Of a DNA stretch of 64,000 bases, positions 2,007 to 56,286 are shown in pieces. Location: contig NZ_CP072600.1 of assembly GCF_019891175.1 (NCBI RefSeq), positions 2,232,001-2,296,000 on the forward strand, in the 5' to 3' direction. The translations under genes and the position numbers were made by a program. The stretch's first letter is position 1. Each line of letters opens with the position of its first letter. The notes under the pieces were generated by a model that was not told the DNA's origin, did not search any database, and was given only the letters and a program-made list of their open reading frames with translations. This DNA comes from Leptothermofonsia sichuanensis E412 (GTDB lineage: Bacteria > Cyanobacteriota > Cyanobacteriia > Leptolyngbyales > Leptolyngbyaceae).

Positions 2007-2176
2007 TGGAGGTTGCCGAAAATAACTCGCCAGTTTCAGGTTGAACCACAAAGACACAAAGCGCACTAAGAGCCTATCCGAAAAGCCCCAATGGACAAAG
2101 CTCAAACCCAGACTGAGGAAGTTTTCGGATAGACCTTAAGAAACGTTGTGTCCCTTCGTGCCTTTGTGGTGAAAAA
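2007..2176. repeat. Dispersed palindromic repeat (family R2) interrupted by a 66-bp element
   Basis: About 100 bp of repeat, including TTGCCGAAAATAACTCGCC and CCACAAAGACACAAAG, closing with CCTTCGTGCCTTTGTGGTG. It matches the inverse complement of 21695-21796 along its whole length, except that here 66 bp plus a duplicated TAAG is inserted after CACTAAG. Related but shorter hairpins built from CCACAGAG-type arms lie at about 11427-11485, 20972-21032, 48550-48610 and 61343-61388. Confidence 0.8.
2071..2136. mobile_element. 66-bp MITE-like element, family R8, copy A
   Basis: Begins AGCCTATCCGAAAAGCC and ends AAGTTTTCGGATAGACCT, giving imperfect terminal inverted repeats of about 14 bp. It is flanked on both sides by TAAG (2067-2070 and 2137-2140), and the homologous R2 copy at 21.7 kb lacks the insert, so this is a filled site with a visible empty counterpart. 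Other copies are at 22622-22689 and 54259-54327. It has no coding capacity, so mobility would need a transposase supplied in trans. Confidence 0.8.
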
Positions 2177-11203: not shown

Positions 11204-11645
11204 TACCTCAAAACCTCTCTCAGTTAGGGATTTTCTCTATTTCTGCCCCTAGCTTAATCAAGATACCTGTGGGGACGGGTTCGGTAGGGACTCCCAAAAG
11301 ACGGGAGATTTCCGTACCTGGCGGACCACTGGAGATTCCACCCGCAGGAATTTTCAACTGGGGCAGCGGCAAGTTTGGGTATCGGGTATTGGGTATCAGA
11401 TATCGGGTGTGGCAAAGCCCATTGAAATTGCACCACAGAGATATAGAGAGCAATTCCTCTGTGCCCTCCGTGTCTCTGTGGTTAAATACTAAGTTTTTTG
11501 AGTCGTTTAACTCAAATCTTGCAGCAGTATCAGAAACCGGGTTTCTTGCCATTCACTTAACCTGAAAGCCTTGATTCTTCGTTCAGAAACCCGGTTTCTC
11601 AAGGCTTGTTGAGAATGGTGCAAAATCTAAGTTAATCTACAATCC
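11204..11645. other. 442-bp gap upstream of dnaK, repeat-rich
   Basis: No gene. It contains a run of near-tandem GGGTATC units (about 11375-11408), an R2-type hairpin with CACCACAGAGATA and TCTCTGTGGTTAAA arms (about 11427-11485), and an R3-like hairpin with AGAAACCGGGTTTCTTG and AGAAACCCGGTTTCTC (about 11530-11602). The dnaK promoter should lie in 11204-11350. Confidence 0.6.
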
Positions 11646-15799: not shown

Positions 15800-16143
15800 A
15801 CTATCATTTTTCCCTCCTATCGTCGCGGCGACTTAACCAATGCTCAATGGGAGAAATTGAAACCACTGTTACCACCGCAAAAGCCCCTGGTCGGACGTCC
15901 TGAGCAGGACCATCGAACCACGACCAATGGCATCTTGTGGATTGATCACACTGGAGCACCGCGGCGAGAGTTACCCGAACGCTATGGACCGTGGCCAACC
16001 GCCGGACGCTTTTACCGTTGGCGTCAAACGGGAGTAGGGTCACGGATTGCAACAACCAGCGGATCACGAAGGCAAGCTCAACTGGGACATCCATTTTGTC
16101 GATGGTGGTGTCATCCATGCGCATCACCTGCTGCTGGGGGCTA
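15800..16143 (+). pseudogene. IS5-family transposase, N-terminal part (broken)
   Basis: Reads RRGDLTNAQWEKLKPLLPPQ and later ERYGPW and GRFYRW in one frame, then switches to a +1 frame near position 16045 to continue EGKLNWDIHFVDGGVIHAH, the first Asp of the DDE centre. The change of frame and absence of a clear start indicate decay before, or independent of, the IS630 insertion at 16142. The C-terminal part resumes at 17097. Confidence 0.75.
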
Positions 16144-17096
16144 TAGCCCTACGCAGTCACGTTAGGGCATTCTCTAAAAGCAGCATCAACACAATCGCGC
16201 AAGTTATCAAACTCATCCCAGCGTTGCCGCATCCAATTTTTGAGCACAAACCACCAATGCTCAATCGGATTCAAGTCTGGGGAATAAGGGGGTAAATACC
16301 AAATCTCACACCCTGCTTGAGTCCCGATCTCTTCAATGGTTTGAGAATGATGGAAACTGGCATTGTCAATCACAATCACATCTCCCGGTCGCAGTTGGGG
16401 GACTAAGCACTCCTCCAACCACATCTCCACTAAATCCCGGTTGCACGAGCCAGCAAAGGTCATTGGCGCAAAGAGGCTGTTCTCTCGTAAGGCAGCAATC
16501 CAACTGACTCGTTCGGTGCGTTTTCCTGATTTAAGCCCATAGAAGCGTTCTCCAACCTCGCAGTAGCCGTAGGGATACACGTCTCGATTATCAATGCCTG
16601 CTTCATCGACATAGACAACCTGATGCGGCAGCTTACTCCTCAAGCGCTCTTGAAACTCCTGTCGCTTCAGGTCGTCTCGTTCCCGATAGCCATAGGTCTT
16701 TTTTTTCGACTAAACCCAATCTTTCGCAAGGCTCGACTGATGTCCTGCTGTGTCACATTATCCCCCCACAGGGTTGCCAGTCTCGCTTGGGTCTGATCCC
16801 CATGCTGCTTGACAAACTCACGAAAGCGCGGCCAGTCGGTAATCTTATGCCGATTTCCGCGCTGAAACCCAGTCATCGCTCGGCAATCTCCCGTTTCTGC
16901 TTCCCGTTTCAACCACAGGTCTAAGGTATGGCGACTGATGTTGAACATTCGACAGACATCAACTTTGCGGTGGCCTTGTTTCACGGCTTCAATCGCTTTG
17001 CAACGCAAGTCGTAGCTGTAGGGGGCGGGCATAGGTGTTCCTAAACTCTCCTGATGGCTCTATAATAACGTCCTAACCCAAATGCGTAGTACTATA
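16142..17096 (-). mobile_element. IS630-family insertion sequence, copy 1
   Basis: 955 bp including flanking TA dinucleotides. Its ends read TATAGCCCTACGCAGTCACG and, inverted, TATAGTACTACGCATTTGGG, imperfect inverted repeats. The TA at each edge fits the TA target preference of IS630/Tc1-type elements. It is inserted within the IS5 transposase gene. A second copy of identical length is at 55332-56286 in the opposite orientation and differs by only a few bases. Confidence 0.9.
16149..17032 (-). CDS. IS630-family transposase (two frames, -1 frameshift)
   Basis: The first frame (17032-16667, 121 aa) holds the helix-turn-helix region RHTLDLWLKREAETGDC. The second (ending 16149) holds the DDE catalytic part: VYVDEAGIDNR, VIVIDNASFHHS and LPPYSPDLNPIEHWW. 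They are joined through a run of eight A residues on the coding strand (16699-16706), where a -1 slip on A AAA AAA would give a 294-aa protein. It differs from copy 2 at only three residues that I can see (P/S, T/A, L/F). Confidence 0.88.
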
Positions 17097-17630
17097 AAAG
17101 GGGGATCTAGCCCCAGAGAAGCTGTTCTCTGCTCTCGACACGTTCAGCGACCAGCGGCATCAGGACGCTCTCAAGCTGGATTCAGTACCAAAATTCATCT
17201 GCGGTGGGATGGCAATGGACTCTCAATTACCTGCCTGCTGAGTGTGGGTGAATGCCATGAAGTCGTCGTGTTGGAACAACTCATGGAACACGGGGCTGTC
17301 AAGCGGGGTGGGGCAGGGCGACCTCGTCTGCGTCCCAAGCGAGTGAGTGGAGACCAAGGGTACAGTAGCGGCAAGATTCGACGCTATCTACGCCGACGAG
17401 GCATTCGCATCACCATTTCTCGTAAGGATAACCAGCGACACCGAGGTAGGTTTGACAAGGCTCTATACCGCCAGAGGAAACAGATTGAACGGTCTTTCAA
17501 TCCTCTGAAGCAATTCCGTCCCATTGCCATCCGCTATGAGAAGCAAGCTGAAAACTACCTTGCCATGCTGACTATAGCCTCTATCATCCTGTGCCTTATA
17601 GTTTTAAAGCAGACCCTGGCCATTTTGTAG
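17097..17630 (+). pseudogene. IS5-family transposase, C-terminal part (broken)
   Basis: Continues the interrupted transposase: GFSTKIHLRWDGNG, VSGDQGYSSGKIRRYLRRRG (second Asp) and RKQIERSFNPLKQF (the Glu region YREE-like helix). It is separated from its N-terminal part by the IS630 copy. The frame runs past the candidate IS end at 17617 to a stop at 17628-17630 in flanking DNA. Confidence 0.8.
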
Positions 17631-20816: not shown

Positions 20817-20971
20817 GAGTGTAATTTAGCTCCCATGAGATATATCCAGAGCCTATCGCATCCTTCCCGGAAACACAGTCTATTTTCTTAAGAAATTCGT
20901 GTTCCCTTCACATCACCCATCTCCCCTCCTTTTCTGACTGAGCAAAGAAATGGGGGGTATGGTCTGAAACT

Positions 20972-21032
20972 TCACCACAGAGGCGTGGAGAACACAGAGG
21001 AATTGCTCTGTGTCTCTGGGGTAAAATATCAG
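20972..21032. repeat. R2-type hairpin repeat
   Basis: CACCACAGAGGCGTGGAG on one arm and GCTCTGTGTCTCTGGGGT on the other, the common CCACAGAG/CTCTGTGG hairpin, between the cyclase and TPR genes. Confidence 0.6.
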
Positions 21033-21047
21033 CCTTTCCGGTCTATT

Positions 21048-21614
21048 TCATCCACGCGCCTGAGCAGAAGGGATCAGCCGCTTTCTAAGCGAATCTGCCC
21101 GACGTTTAGCCGTAGCGTTTTTGGGTTCAATGGCCAGTACCTGGTCGTATGCCTCCAGAGCCTGGGCGGTCAGTTGCTTGCGCTCATAGGCATGACCGAT
21201 ATTATTGAGTGCCGTAATGTAGTTGGGTTGAACTTTCAGCGCCTCTTTGTACTGGCGAATTGCCAGGTCGTACTGCTCCTGAGCAAAATAGGCAAATCCC
21301 AGGGCATTGTAAACCAGCGCGCTATCTGGCTCTGTTAAGTCCTCTGCCTTCAGTGATTTCTGAAAGAGGGAAATCGCCTGAGCATAAATTTTCTTGTCTA
21401 GATAAATACTACCTAGTTCGTAATACTCTTGAGCTGTTCCTTTCTCCTTCGTCAACTTTGATTGCAACCGATTGAGCGCACTTTCCACTCGCCGGGTCTT
21501 AATAATTTGCCGAAAAACCACCCAGGCTGCCACGGACAACAGCACCAGCAATAAAGAGACATAAACTACTGGAAATGAATCTTGCATATCTACCGTTAGC
21601 TTTTCCAAACACAA
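21048..21614 (-). CDS. Membrane-anchored TPR protein
   Basis: A 188-aa protein with an N-terminal membrane segment (VVYVSLLLVLLSVAAWVVF, about residues 15-35) and about three to four tetratricopeptide repeats after residue 60 (ALVYNALGFAYFAQEQYDLA, NYITALNNIGHAYERKQLTA). TPRs bind other proteins; such small anchored TPR proteins are common in cyanobacteria, often in complex assembly. No specific partner can be named. Confidence 0.8.
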   Translation of the reverse strand: MCLEKLTVDMQDSFPVVYVSLLLVLLSVAAWVVFRQIIKTRRVESALNRLQSKLTKEKGTAQEYYELGSIYLDKKIYAQAISLFQKSLKAEDLTEPDSALVYNALGFAYFAQEQYDLAIRQYKEALKVQPNYITALNNIGHAYERKQLTAQALEAYDQVLAIEPKNATAKRRADSLRKRLIPSAQARG

Positions 21615-21694
21615 TGTAAAACCGGGCTACCCATCAACCTACAACAATTTGAGTAGCTTGGGGAGAAATCTTTCTAGTGTATTGCGGCAGAAGT

Positions 21695-21796
21695 TTTTCA
21701 CCACAAAGGCACGAAGGGACACAAAGTTTCTTCGTGTGCTTTGTGTCTTTGTGGCTCAAGCTAAAACTGGCGAGTTATTTTCGGCAACCTGCACTA
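21695..21796. repeat. Dispersed palindromic repeat family R2, uninterrupted copy
   Basis: The inverse complement of 2007-2176 but without the 66-bp insert. It carries CACCACAAAGGCACGAAGG, then CTTTGTGTCTTTGTGG and GGCGAGTTATTTTCGGCAAC. It serves as the empty-site comparison for the R8 element. Confidence 0.8.
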
Positions 21797-22582
21797 GGGC
21801 AGTCCCCAATGAACTGCCCGTTCCTTCAACCAACCTTCTGCCTGCCAGCGAGTCAGGATCTGATTGATTCGCTGTCGCAGTTCGTCATACTGGAGTCCTT
21901 TAGGTAGAACAATGCAGAGGGGTTCTACGGACAGGGTGGGGGTGAGCAGCCGGTATTGAGGATGTTTCTGTACCCAACCGCTTAAAACACTGGCATCGGC
22001 AGCAAACGCGATCGCATCCCCCCTTTCCAACAGGGAGCGGGCAGCCTCGTAGGAAGGAACCCCAATCAACCGTGCCTGAGGTAAACGGTTACGAATCAGA
22101 GGAATCGTACTGGAGTTGTCTAATACCGCGATCGCCTGATTGGTGATATCCAGCGAGGTTTGTATAGCTGGATTTTGAGTAATCAGCGCTGTACCGTCCC
22201 GGTAGTAGGGGATGCTGAACGCAACAACCCGCGATCTCACTGGGGTCATGGTGACTCTGGCAATGGCAATGTCTACCCGACCATCCAGAACGGCTCCAAT
22301 TCGCTCCTGATTTAGAACAGGCACCAGTATTAATCCATCGGGTCGCCCCAGCAATTCCTGAGATAACCGTTGGGCAATCTCAATTTCCAGTCCCTGCAAT
22401 TGCCCATCCGATCCCCGGAAGCCTAAGGGGATCAAATTATCCTTGACCGCTACCCGCAGTTGTCCCTGCGCCTGAATCGTTTTCAAGTCTCTGGACAGCG
22501 CAAAAGGGGATGTCAACAAAGACATCCCCACCAGGCAAATGGCAAAACTCTGACTTGCCAACGATAGAAAAAGACTGGACAT
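21794..22582 (-). CDS. Amino-acid-type periplasmic substrate-binding protein
   Basis: A 262-aa protein with an N-terminal signal sequence (hydrophobic core about residues 10-28) and an SBP_bac_3 domain: LRVAVKDNLIPLGFRG, LQGLEIEIAQRLSQEL, GRVDIAIARVTMTPVR and IAVLDNSSTIPLI. It is of the family that binds polar amino acids or related small ligands. No transporter membrane genes are nearby. The C terminus ends at a conserved-looking WLKERAVHWGLP. Confidence 0.82.
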   Translation of the reverse strand: MSSLFLSLASQSFAICLVGMSLLTSPFALSRDLKTIQAQGQLRVAVKDNLIPLGFRGSDGQLQGLEIEIAQRLSQELLGRPDGLILVPVLNQERIGAVLDGRVDIAIARVTMTPVRSRVVAFSIPYYRDGTALITQNPAIQTSLDITNQAIAVLDNSSTIPLIRNRLPQARLIGVPSYEAARSLLERGDAIAFAADASVLSGWVQKHPQYRLLTPTLSVEPLCIVLPKGLQYDELRQRINQILTRWQAEGWLKERAVHWGLP

Positions 22583-22621: not shown

Positions 22622-22689
22622 AAGCCTATCCGAAAAGCCCCAACTGGTAGAACCTCGACCTGAACCAGGGAAGTTTTCGGATAGATCTT
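22622..22689. mobile_element. MITE-like element family R8, copy B
   Basis: AAGCCTATCCGAAAAGCCCC on the left and AAGTTTTCGGATAGATCTTT on the right. The internal sequence is more diverged than in copies A and C. It abuts the rplT stop codon and so may serve as the 3' end of that transcript. Confidence 0.7.
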
Positions 22690-23066
22690 TAAGCGGCTGA
22701 TTTTGCACCTGATTTTGCACCTTGACTGACAACCTGCAAGACCTGGTCAAACCCTGCCGGGTCAAGAACCGCCATCTGTGCCAGCATCTTACGGTTGAGC
22801 TGAATGTTTGCCTTCTTCAAACCACCCATCAGTTGACTGTAACTCATGCCGTGCTGACGAGCGGCGGCATTGATGCGAGTAATCCAAAGTCGGCGAAAGT
22901 CACGCTTGCGCTTGCGGCGATCGGCATAGGCATAGCGCAGTGCTTTCATCACCTGCTGATTGGCTGTCCGAAACAGGCGATGATGAGAACCCCTGAACCC
23001 CTTTGCCAGCTTCAAAATTTTCTTGCGGCGTTTACGAGCCACATTGCCGCGCTTTACCCTTGCCAT
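22689..23066 (-). CDS. rplT: 50S ribosomal protein L20
   Basis: Large-subunit protein of 125 aa, starting [20 protein letters not shown] with the typical [20 protein letters not shown] region and [17 protein letters not shown]. It follows rpmI by 133 bp, the usual order. The infC gene that often precedes them is not here. Confidence 0.97.
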
Positions 23067-48510: not shown

Positions 48511-48612
48511 TGGAGAAAACTCATTCAATATGGAGAAAACTCATTCAATAGAGACACAGAGGGCACAGAGCAATTTCTCTGTGTTCTATGTGCCTCTGTG
48601 GTGAAATTTCAG
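48511..48612. repeat. 20-bp tandem duplication plus R2-type hairpin after lepA
   Basis: ATGGAGAAAACTCATTCAAT occurs twice in tandem directly after the lepA stop (48510-48549). It is followed by a CACAGAGGGCACAGAG / CTCTGTGTTCTATGTG hairpin of the R2 type. The first copy begins at the lepA stop codon. Confidence 0.7.
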
Positions 48613-54121: not shown

Positions 54122-54423
54122 GGTTAAGCAGTCTCCTTATGGACAGATGGCTTTTGGTAAGGAGGGGACACACTGGACCTGTCCTGATTGGACCGATGGC
54201 GTGTTACCCTGTACCCCAAAAAGCAAGGACTTATTATTCTACCCTAGTTTTGGGACTTAAAGCCTATCCGAAAAGCCGCAATGGACAAAGCCCAAATCCA
54301 GACTGAGGAAGTTTTCGGATAGGCTTTTAGGGAAATTGCTAAAAACTTCAAAATGGCAGGCTCCTAATCAGGACGCTCTGCATCGATAATCATCATTAAC
54401 CCATAAGACATATTTGTAACCCT
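54122..54423. other. Divergent promoter region with R8 element
   Basis: Between rpsF and the FAH gene. It holds the R8 MITE copy C (54259-54327); the remainder has no gene. rpsF promoter probably in 54122-54240, FAH promoter in 54330-54420. Confidence 0.6.
54259..54327. mobile_element. MITE-like element family R8, copy C
   Basis: AAAGCCTATCCGAAAA and TTTTCGGATAGGCTTT are 16-bp perfect inverted repeats; the inside (CAATGGACAAAGCCCAAATC, CAGACTGAGGAAG) matches copy A almost base for base. The best preserved of the three copies. Confidence 0.85.
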
Positions 54424-55209: not shown

Positions 55210-55331
55210 TTGTTAGGTGTCAGGAATTTGCAACTAAATAAGGTTCCTGCTCATAGTGATGCATTGAAGTTAGAAAAGCTAGTCTGAATAATTCATCAGA
55301 AGGATAGCCCCGGTGTCCAGGCTCTGCTACT

Positions 55332-56286
55332 TATAGCACTACGCATTTGGGTTAGGACGTTATTATAGAGCCATCAGGAGAGTTTAGGAACACCTATGCC
55401 CGCCCCCTACAGCTACGACTTGCGTTGCAAAGCGATTGAAGCCGTGAAACAAGGCCACCGCAAAGTTGATGTCTGTCGAATGTTCAACATCAGTCGCCAT
55501 ACCTTAGACCTGTGGTTGAAACGGGAAGCAGAAACGGGAGATTGCCGAGCGATGACTGGGTTTCAGCGCGGAAATCGGCATAAGATTACCGACTGGTCGC
55601 GCTTTCGTGAGTTTGTCAAGCAGCATGGGGATCAGACCCAAGCGAGACTGGCAACCCTGTGGGGGGATAATGTGACACAGCAGGACATCAGTCGAGCCTT
55701 GCGAAAGATTGGGTTTAGTCGAAAAAAAAGACCTATGGCTATCGGGAACGAGACGACCTGAAGCGACAGGAGTTTCAAGAGCGCTTGAGGAGTAAGCTGC
55801 CGCATCAGGTTGTCTATGTCGATGAAGCAGGCATTGATAATCGAGACGTGTATCCCTACGGCTACTGCGAGGTTGGAGAACGCTTCTATGGGCTTAAATC
55901 AGGAAAACGCACCGAACGAGTCAGTTGGATTGCTGCCTTACGAGAGAACAGCCTCTTTGCGCCAATGACCTTTGCTGGCTCGTGCAACCGGGATTTAGTG
56001 GAGATGTGGTTGGAGGAGTGCTTAGTCCCCCAACTGCGACCGGGAGATGTGATTGTGATTGACAATGCCAGTTTCCATCATTCTCAAACCATTGAAGAGA
56101 TCGGGGCTCAAGCAGGGTGTGAGATTTGGTATTTACCCCCTTATTCCCCAGACTTGAATCCGATTGAGCATTGGTGGTTTGTGCTCAAAAATTGGATGCG
56201 GCAACGCTGGGATGAGTTTGATAACTTTCGCGATTGTGTTGATGCTGCTTTTAGAGAATGCCCTAACGTGACTGCGTAGGGCTATA
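55332..56286 (+). mobile_element. IS630-family insertion sequence, copy 2
   Basis: 955 bp, same length as copy 1 at 16142-17096 but on the other strand. Left end TATAGCACTACGCATTTGGG, right end reading inward TATAGCCCTACGCAGTCACG; flanked by TA. Inserted in an intergenic region between the FAH and Tic20 genes. Confidence 0.9.
55396..56279 (+). CDS. IS630-family transposase (two frames, -1 frameshift)
   Basis: First frame 55396-55761 (121 aa, helix-turn-helix SRHTLDLWLKRE); second frame in -1 register to 56279 with the DDE residues VYVDEAGIDNR, VIDNASFHHS and DLNPIEHWW. The A8 run at 55722-55729 is the likely slip site; a -1 slip gives 294 aa. Probably the active form, as no stop or gap breaks it. 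Confidence 0.9.

What the first reader, a model, noticed from the sequence alone, without database searches (positions are those of the whole stretch)
2007..2176. Filled and empty site of a 66-bp MITE-like element (R8)
The repeat at 2007-2176 matches the inverse complement of 21695-21796 end to end, except that the first has 66 bp plus a TAAG duplication inserted. The insert has its own inverted ends (AGCCTATCCGAAAA and TTTTCGGATAGACCT) and two relatives at 22.6 and 54.3 kb. Filled site, empty site, target duplication and inverted ends together are strong evidence that this tiny non-coding element moves. No transposase with matching ends is in the window.
Basis: seen in the sequence. Interest (0 to 1): 0.55.

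Follow-up and report, generated by a model that had tools for sequence, protein, structure and literature searches.

The report
67-bp MITE of IS5 kin, ~200 copies
The insert is one of about 200 copies of a tiny passenger transposon in a cyanobacterial genome; its ends and 3-base target duplications match a known IS5-type jumping gene of which only a fragment was found here, so it is a good but ordinary example, with one twist: many copies sit at the same spot inside other repeats.

Summary
The insert is 67 bp (2070-2136) with a 3-bp TAA duplication, not 66 bp + TAAG. It belongs to a family of about 200 copies in this 6.43-Mb genome (52 profile hits in a 1.64-Mb even sample). Of 69 full-length copies examined, 53 are flanked by identical TAA or TTA. 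The copy at 54,260 has an orthologous empty site in the only other genome held from the genus. The likely partner is an IS5-family element (NF033580, IS1031-like), intact in Drouetiella hepatica with matching 15-bp ends. In this genome I found only a truncated remnant, so the MITE is probably stranded.

The R2 "filled versus empty site" is weak evidence for a separate jump: 20 R2 copies carry the MITE at the same base, 18 in one orientation, against 17 empty ones, and within R2 only bases next to the insert distinguish filled from empty. Spread between R2 copies by gene conversion, or a hotspot, is likely. New member of a known kind; interest 0.3.

The parts
2070..2136 (+). 67-bp MITE copy, the insert named in the finding
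   Evidence: nhmmer 75.3 bits against the family profile; sequence; flanks
2070..2084 (+). left terminal inverted repeat GAGCCTATCCGAAAA
   Evidence: identical to the 15-bp end of IS5-family copies in relatives
2122..2136 (-). right terminal inverted repeat (AGGTCTATCCGAAAA on the minus strand)
2067..2069 (.). left copy of the 3-bp target duplication, TAA
2137..2139 (.). right copy of the 3-bp target duplication, TAA
2001..2176 (+). host repeat R2, filled and cut short at its right end
   Evidence: r2 profile hit
21674..21800 (-). host repeat R2, empty, with GAA at the target position
22622..22688 (+). diverged MITE copy (35 bits); its right flanking TTA (22689-22691) is the complement of the stop codon of the ORF 22689-23066 on the minus strand, which reads as rplT (name recalled); left flank TCA
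54260..54326 (+). MITE copy with TTA duplication (54257-54259 and 54327-54329) at an intergenic site outside R2 and B; orthologous site empty in sister genome G001

Best explanation
A non-autonomous miniature transposon (MITE) of 67 bp, made of the 15-bp ends of an IS5-family element (NF033580, IS1031-like) around a ~37-bp core that does not look related. Inferred mechanism: a transposase of that IS type bound the ends in trans and inserted the element at C-TTA-R sites with a 3-bp duplication. Shown: ends, duplication, target preference, copy number, one orthologous empty site, and an IS in relatives with the same ends and TTA/TAA flanks. Inferred: that this transposase did the moving, and that movement has ceased because only a truncated remnant of the IS was found in this genome. 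The copies inside the R2 and B repeats, including the one in the finding, probably did not all arise as separate jumps; copying between repeats (gene conversion, or co-dispersal with later recombination) after an initial insertion at the R2 apex fits better.
For: Copy number: 52 hits at E<=1e-3 in 1.644 Mb from 80 evenly spaced places (79 stretches and the window); 171 exact 15-nt ends genome-wide. Duplications: 53 of 69 full-length copies; in the even sample alone 30 of 36. Outside R2 and B: 23 of 30, against a mean of 10.4 and at most 19 in 10,000 re-pairings of the same flanks; even sample 12 of 15. Target at these 23: C before TTA in 18, G/A after in 18. Partner: 272-aa open transposase (PF13340, PF01609, PF13586; NF033580 259 bits against a cut-off of 110) in an 887-bp element with perfect inverted 15-bp ends in a Drouetiella hepatica MAG; the ends equal the left end of the window copy and differ from the MITE consensus at the first base (G for A). 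22 of the 31 loci hold at least one such end within 3 mismatches. Flanking triplets are TTA or TAA at both ends of 12 of 12 two-ended elements scored, equal in 8. PMC12016507 (passage seen): IS1031 subgroup, 5'-TNA-3' target, 3-bp repeat, 857-bp example. Own remnant: end, then 60% identity over 65 aa. Orthologous empty site.
Against: No transposition was observed, and no intact partner was found in this genome among the places scanned. The core has no similarity to the IS ends that I could see beyond the 15 bp (by eye only), so derivation by internal deletion is not shown. 4 of the 12 IS relatives, the intact Drouetiella copy among them, have unequal triplets (TTA against TAA); 4 of the 12 are longer (1,013-1,391 bp) and may not be simple elements. 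9 of 31 loci showed no such end within 3 mismatches. The profile was seeded with 16 copies having perfect ends, which favours intact copies. At the orthologous site G001 reads TCA rather than TTA in the alignment, and the second relative, G010, aligns clearly only on the left.
Confidence: 0.9

Rival explanations
1. All R2-resident copies are independent transpositions into a hotspot at the R2 apex, where CACTAAG offers the preferred CTTAG target.
For: The R2 target (CTTAGTG on the minus strand) fits the consensus from other sites. Identical MITE variants occur in R2, B and other sites. Filled R2 arms differ more from one another (mean 7.7 of 54 flank bases, compared without gaps and so inflated by indels) than their MITEs do (4.0 of 67), n = 19. 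Two R2 copies hold the MITE in the opposite orientation. Other elements also sit at the apex.
Against: Orientation 18 to 2 among 20 filled R2 copies, binomial p = 0.0004 (27 to 2 over all R2-flanked MITE copies), although it is 13:10 elsewhere. The sixth base beyond the site (G in 16 of 20 filled, 2 of 17 empty, p = 5e-5) is hard to explain without shared ancestry; a target preference could explain part of it, since at other sites the corresponding position has C 7, A 2, T 13, G 1.
Confidence: 0.3
2. The MITE hitch-hiked: R2+MITE and B+MITE moved as whole composite units.
For: Fixed position and mostly fixed orientation (R2 27:2, B 15:2); marker base linked to the insert; B copies are mostly filled (8 of 10 hits in the sample).
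Against: Within R2 only two columns (printed as -3 and +5, the first base of the triplet and the sixth base after it) are associated with filling; five further columns below p = 0.05 among the 134 tested lie outside R2, in flank, as chance would give (two of the 37 rows, L034 and L237, lack a true R2 left arm). MITE and R2 distances are uncorrelated (r = 0.10, p = 0.30, n = 19). R2 shows no clear duplication of its own (7 of 21 equal, shuffled mean 4.3, maximum 10).
Confidence: 0.25
3. It is a functional hairpin (terminator or RNA element) retained by selection rather than a transposon.
For: Strong hairpin, -26.8 kcal/mol, z -4.8; one copy abuts a stop codon of an ORF that reads as rplT.
Against: Target duplications, both orientations, presence in other repeats, no Rfam match in the window, and absence from the sister genome at a syntenic site. 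The hairpin follows from the inverted ends.
Confidence: 0.04

Closest known systems
IS5 family, IS1031 subgroup (NCBIfam NF033580 transpos_IS5_3)
   Same: Same 15-bp ends (first base G or A), TTA/TAA flanks (a subset of TNA), 886-934 bp in 8 of the 12 relatives scored
   Different: The element here is 67 bp, codes for nothing and has a core that does not look related
Bacterial MITEs in general (Correia, ERIC, Chunjie, QMITE; Nezha in cyanobacteria), from the review PMC10969869 (passages seen; Nezha seen there only as a cited title)
   Same: Short, non-coding, inverted ends, target duplication, tens to hundreds of copies
   Different: Shorter than the examples whose lengths I saw in those passages (178-400 bp); frequently at one fixed point inside other repeats
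Nested insertion in a repeat: IS1111 in QMITE2 of Coxiella (PMC10969869, passage seen)
   Same: A mobile element that uses another repeat as its target
   Different: There a full IS in two copies; here a MITE in 20 of the R2 copies examined

Membership tests
MITE | Short, no coding capacity | tested here: met
   67 bp
MITE | Terminal inverted repeats | tested here: met
   15-bp perfect in the consensus
MITE | Target-site duplication at most copies | tested here: met
   53 of 69 full-length; even sample 30 of 36
MITE | High copy number | tested here: met
   about 200, extrapolated from 52 hits in 1.644 Mb
MITE | Ends shared with an autonomous element | tested here: met
   in relatives and a remnant in the own genome
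MITE | Orthologous empty site | tested here: met
   one copy tested with success, sister genome G001; the 2-kb copy gave no answer
MITE | Mobilised in trans by the partner transposase | not testable with these tools
   needs an experiment
IS5 family, IS1031 subgroup (partner) | IS5-type DDE transposase | tested here: met
   NF033580 259 bits against cut-off 110; PF13340, PF01609, PF13586
IS5 family, IS1031 subgroup (partner) | TNA target, 3-bp duplication (feature as stated in PMC12016507) | tested here: met
   flanks TTA/TAA in 12 of 12 scored, equal in 8, unequal in 4
IS5 family, IS1031 subgroup (partner) | Placement in ISfinder subgroup by tree | not tested
   no ISfinder copy at hand; the subgroup is assigned by target rule and length only
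REP/RAYT elements | No target duplication; Y1 transposase (features recalled) | tested here: not met
   duplications present; Y1 transposases were not searched for

The most novel reading that the evidence does not exclude
A stranded MITE that went on spreading without its transposase, by ectopic gene conversion between copies of other dispersed repeats (R2, B): linkage to the host repeat covers only about ten bases around the insert, while the repeats themselves stay diverse.
Probability: 0.35. Interest if true: 0.5.

Novelty: new member of a known kind. Interest (0 to 1): 0.3.

Why it matters
It gives a well-defined MITE/IS pair in the Leptolyngbyales group, with ends, target rule and an empty site. 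The MITE also acts as a natural tag for how anonymous palindromic repeats (R2, B) exchange sequence, a process usually hard to see. Neither point changes general knowledge of MITEs.

Tried and rejected
Partner in the own genome: loci of 30 of 41 PF01609 places, 14 of 14 PF13340 places and 20 of 25 NF033580 places, which overlap, were scanned for the end core with up to 2 mismatches. Only the truncated remnant at C1:429,644 has the end beside a transposase start; the other matches were MITE copies or isolated weak matches. The 275-aa open IS5-type transposase at C1:2,492,447 has other inverted repeats around it. A ~1.17-kb IS (12 of 23 identically scoring PF01609 places compared) has CTCAGTACAGGACA-type ends and longer duplications. 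The 956-bp identical pair in the window (16,142-17,097 and 55,331-56,286) lacks these ends. A 154-aa piece of the G016 transposase matched 3 of 386 genomes of the phylum at E<=1e-20, the own genome not among them.

4-bp TAAG duplication: rejected on the family consensus. TA-only duplication (IS630/Tc1 type): rejected, since it would make the element asymmetric in a target-dependent way (inference). R2 as a MITE with a YTAR duplication: inconclusive. Orthologous test at the 2-kb copy: gene order is not conserved in G001, so uninformative. Stop-codon targeting: a stop of a frame of 100 codons or more lies at the site in 4 of 69 full-length copies, so no general rule (the 22.6-kb copy was not in that set). 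Plasmid collection: 5 records with 23-24-base matches only. Literature: no paper found for the end sequence, for MITE plus Leptolyngbya or for IS1031 + IS5 family + MITE; open-access library only. The lists were seen as listings; passages were seen of PMC10969869, PMC2246112, PMC12016507 and PMC7031236.

Rows dropped: hits above E 1e-3, under 25 bits or within 60 bases of a stretch end were left out of the copy tables, so 47 sample copies stand there against 52 hits; four R2 right halves not classifiable as filled or empty were left out of the marker test; IS relatives L145 and L159 lack one flank and were not scored. Of 31 loci, the end scan used 22 and that all 31.

Full report
What is there. 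The window lies in a 6,426,061-bp genome held as one contig (C1:2,232,001-2,296,000). A genome of the same family, G026, is very probably Myxacorys almedinensis, since a 117-aa transposase piece at the end of a 10.7-kb contig is identical in both collections; NCBI places that species in Leptolyngbyaceae, Leptolyngbyales. At 2007-2176 a ~125-bp dispersed repeat (R2) carries an insert that its relative at 21.7 kb lacks. The insert is 67 bp, 2070-2136, between TAA and TAA.

How many. BLAST lists 41 near-full-length places; the tool scored only 40 of 219 first-look candidates, so this is a lower bound. The exact pattern of both ends gives 97 matches against 0 for its reversed control (many copies are counted on both strands because the ends are inverted repeats). 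The 15-nt end alone occurs 171 times; its reversed control gives 82, which is not a clean control because the reversed word also reads in an end preceded by AA. An even sample of 79 stretches of 20 kb plus the window (1.644 Mb, 5 kb of it masked) has 52 profile hits at E<=1e-3, hence about 200 copies. Of 64 full-length 67-mers, 6 equal the consensus, 47 differ at 1-6 bases and 11 at 7-21. The ends are less changed than the core (3.5% against 8.4%), but the 16 profile seeds had perfect ends, so this is biased.

Evidence that it moves. Of 85 copies with flanks, 69 are full length and 53 of these have TAA/TAA or TTA/TTA at the same place; in the even sample 30 of 36. Outside the R2 and B repeats 23 of 30 match; re-pairing the same flanks gives a mean of 10.4 and a maximum of 19 in 10,000 trials. 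Turned to TTA, these 23 sites show C before in 18 and G or A after in 18, and the MITE lies in either direction (13:10). For the copy at 54,260, the flanks joined without the insert match the other genome of the genus, G001, over the whole 730 bases at 72% identity. The alignment runs through the site without the 67 bp, with conserved blocks about ten bases or less away on each side; the triplet there reads TCA. A second relative, G010, also matches across the joined flanks (67%), but its local alignment is clear only on the left.

The partner. Among 42 genomes of the order the exact end occurs in the own genome and once each in three others. In G016 it bounds an 886-bp decayed element coding for an IS5-type transposase. 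In G012 it is part of a 67-bp look-alike whose other end has 3 mismatches and whose flanks do not match. In G009 no second end or transposase was seen in the locus. A search of named genomes with a 117-aa open piece of this transposase type gave 31 loci, 22 of them with at least one such end within 3 mismatches. In a Drouetiella hepatica MAG an 887-bp element with perfect inverted 15-bp ends holds a 272-aa open frame that matches NF033580 at 259 bits and PF13340, PF01609 and PF13586. Copies in Oculatellaceae Prado106 and Nodosilinea have the same kind of ends with split frames, and others lie in distant phyla. Of the 12 two-ended elements scored (8 of 886-934 bp, 4 of 1,013-1,391 bp), flanking triplets are TTA or TAA at both ends in all 12, equal in 8 and TTA against TAA in 4, Drouetiella among the 4. 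This fits the TNA rule of the IS1031 subgroup as stated in PMC12016507 (passage seen). The own genome holds a remnant at C1:429,644: TTA, an end with 3 changes from the MITE consensus, and a start region 60% identical over 65 aa to the G016 element, then a break. None of the IS5-type places scanned in the own genome is an intact partner with these ends (20 of 25 NF033580 places had loci). Hence the view that the family is stranded, an inference.

The R2 question. R2 is a palindromic repeat with many copies. In the own DNA fetched, which is enriched in MITE loci, 20 R2 copies with a right arm are filled and 17 empty, always at the same point; 18 of the 20 are in one orientation. In the even sample alone 9 are filled and 15 empty. 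Empty copies have GAA (8), TAA (8) or CAA (1) at the site. The sixth base beyond the site is G in 16 of 20 filled and 2 of 17 empty copies (p = 5e-5; even sample 6 of 9 against 1 of 15, p = 0.004). Over the R2 alignment only this column and the first base of the triplet are associated with filling; five further columns below 0.05 lie outside R2 (134 tested). MITE distance and R2 distance do not correlate (r = 0.10, p = 0.30, n = 19). So filled copies share a short tract but not the whole repeat. I read this as secondary spread between R2 copies, with gene conversion somewhat ahead of co-dispersal or an orientation-biased hotspot; none is excluded. A second repeat, B, shows the same habit: 8 of 10 B hits in the sample are filled, and the MITE lies 15:2 in one orientation.

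Possible effects. The ends give a stable hairpin (-26.8 kcal/mol, z -4.8). One copy abuts the stop codon of an ORF that reads as rplT (name recalled), so it may change the 3' end of that transcript; not tested. No Rfam family matches in the window.

Novelty. Kind known (MITE of an IS5-family element). This family was not found in print in the searches named (open-access library only). The copying between repeats is the most interesting part and remains open.

Noticed in passing
15804-17630: An IS5-type transposase gene (DUF4096 part at 15,833, DDE part at 17,151) is split by a 956-bp IS630-like element (family recalled) that has a 100% identical second copy, inverted, at 55,331-56,286.
   Followed up: partly
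L231:17800-17940: Next to an R2-resident MITE a further insert of roughly 120 bp lies between TAA and TAA at the R2 apex; ACAGAG-type repeats also sit at the R2 apex in other copies.
   Followed up: partly
L034:1500-1640: Two MITE copies stand head to tail in one R2, sharing a TAA between them.
   Followed up: no
L110:1449-1515: In G012, of another genus, a single 67-bp look-alike has one perfect end, one end with 3 mismatches and a different core, without matching flank triplets.
   Followed up: no
20971-21055, 48548-48607, 11422-11490: A second palindromic repeat (CCACAGAG...CTCTGTGG) related in style to R2, many copies in the sample.
   Followed up: no
L111, L143, L150, L167 (IS relatives): 4 of 12 IS copies have TTA on one side and TAA on the other rather than equal triplets; not explained.
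   Followed up: no
L116:1501-1567: A decayed MITE copy lies where the joined flanks give an open frame of 933 codons, so it may interrupt a gene; seven other full-length copies also gave frames of 120 codons or more through the site.
   Followed up: no
L111:1168-2386: In G016 the decayed IS interrupts a gene that reads as a TIR-domain protein (recalled from its sequence).
   Followed up: no
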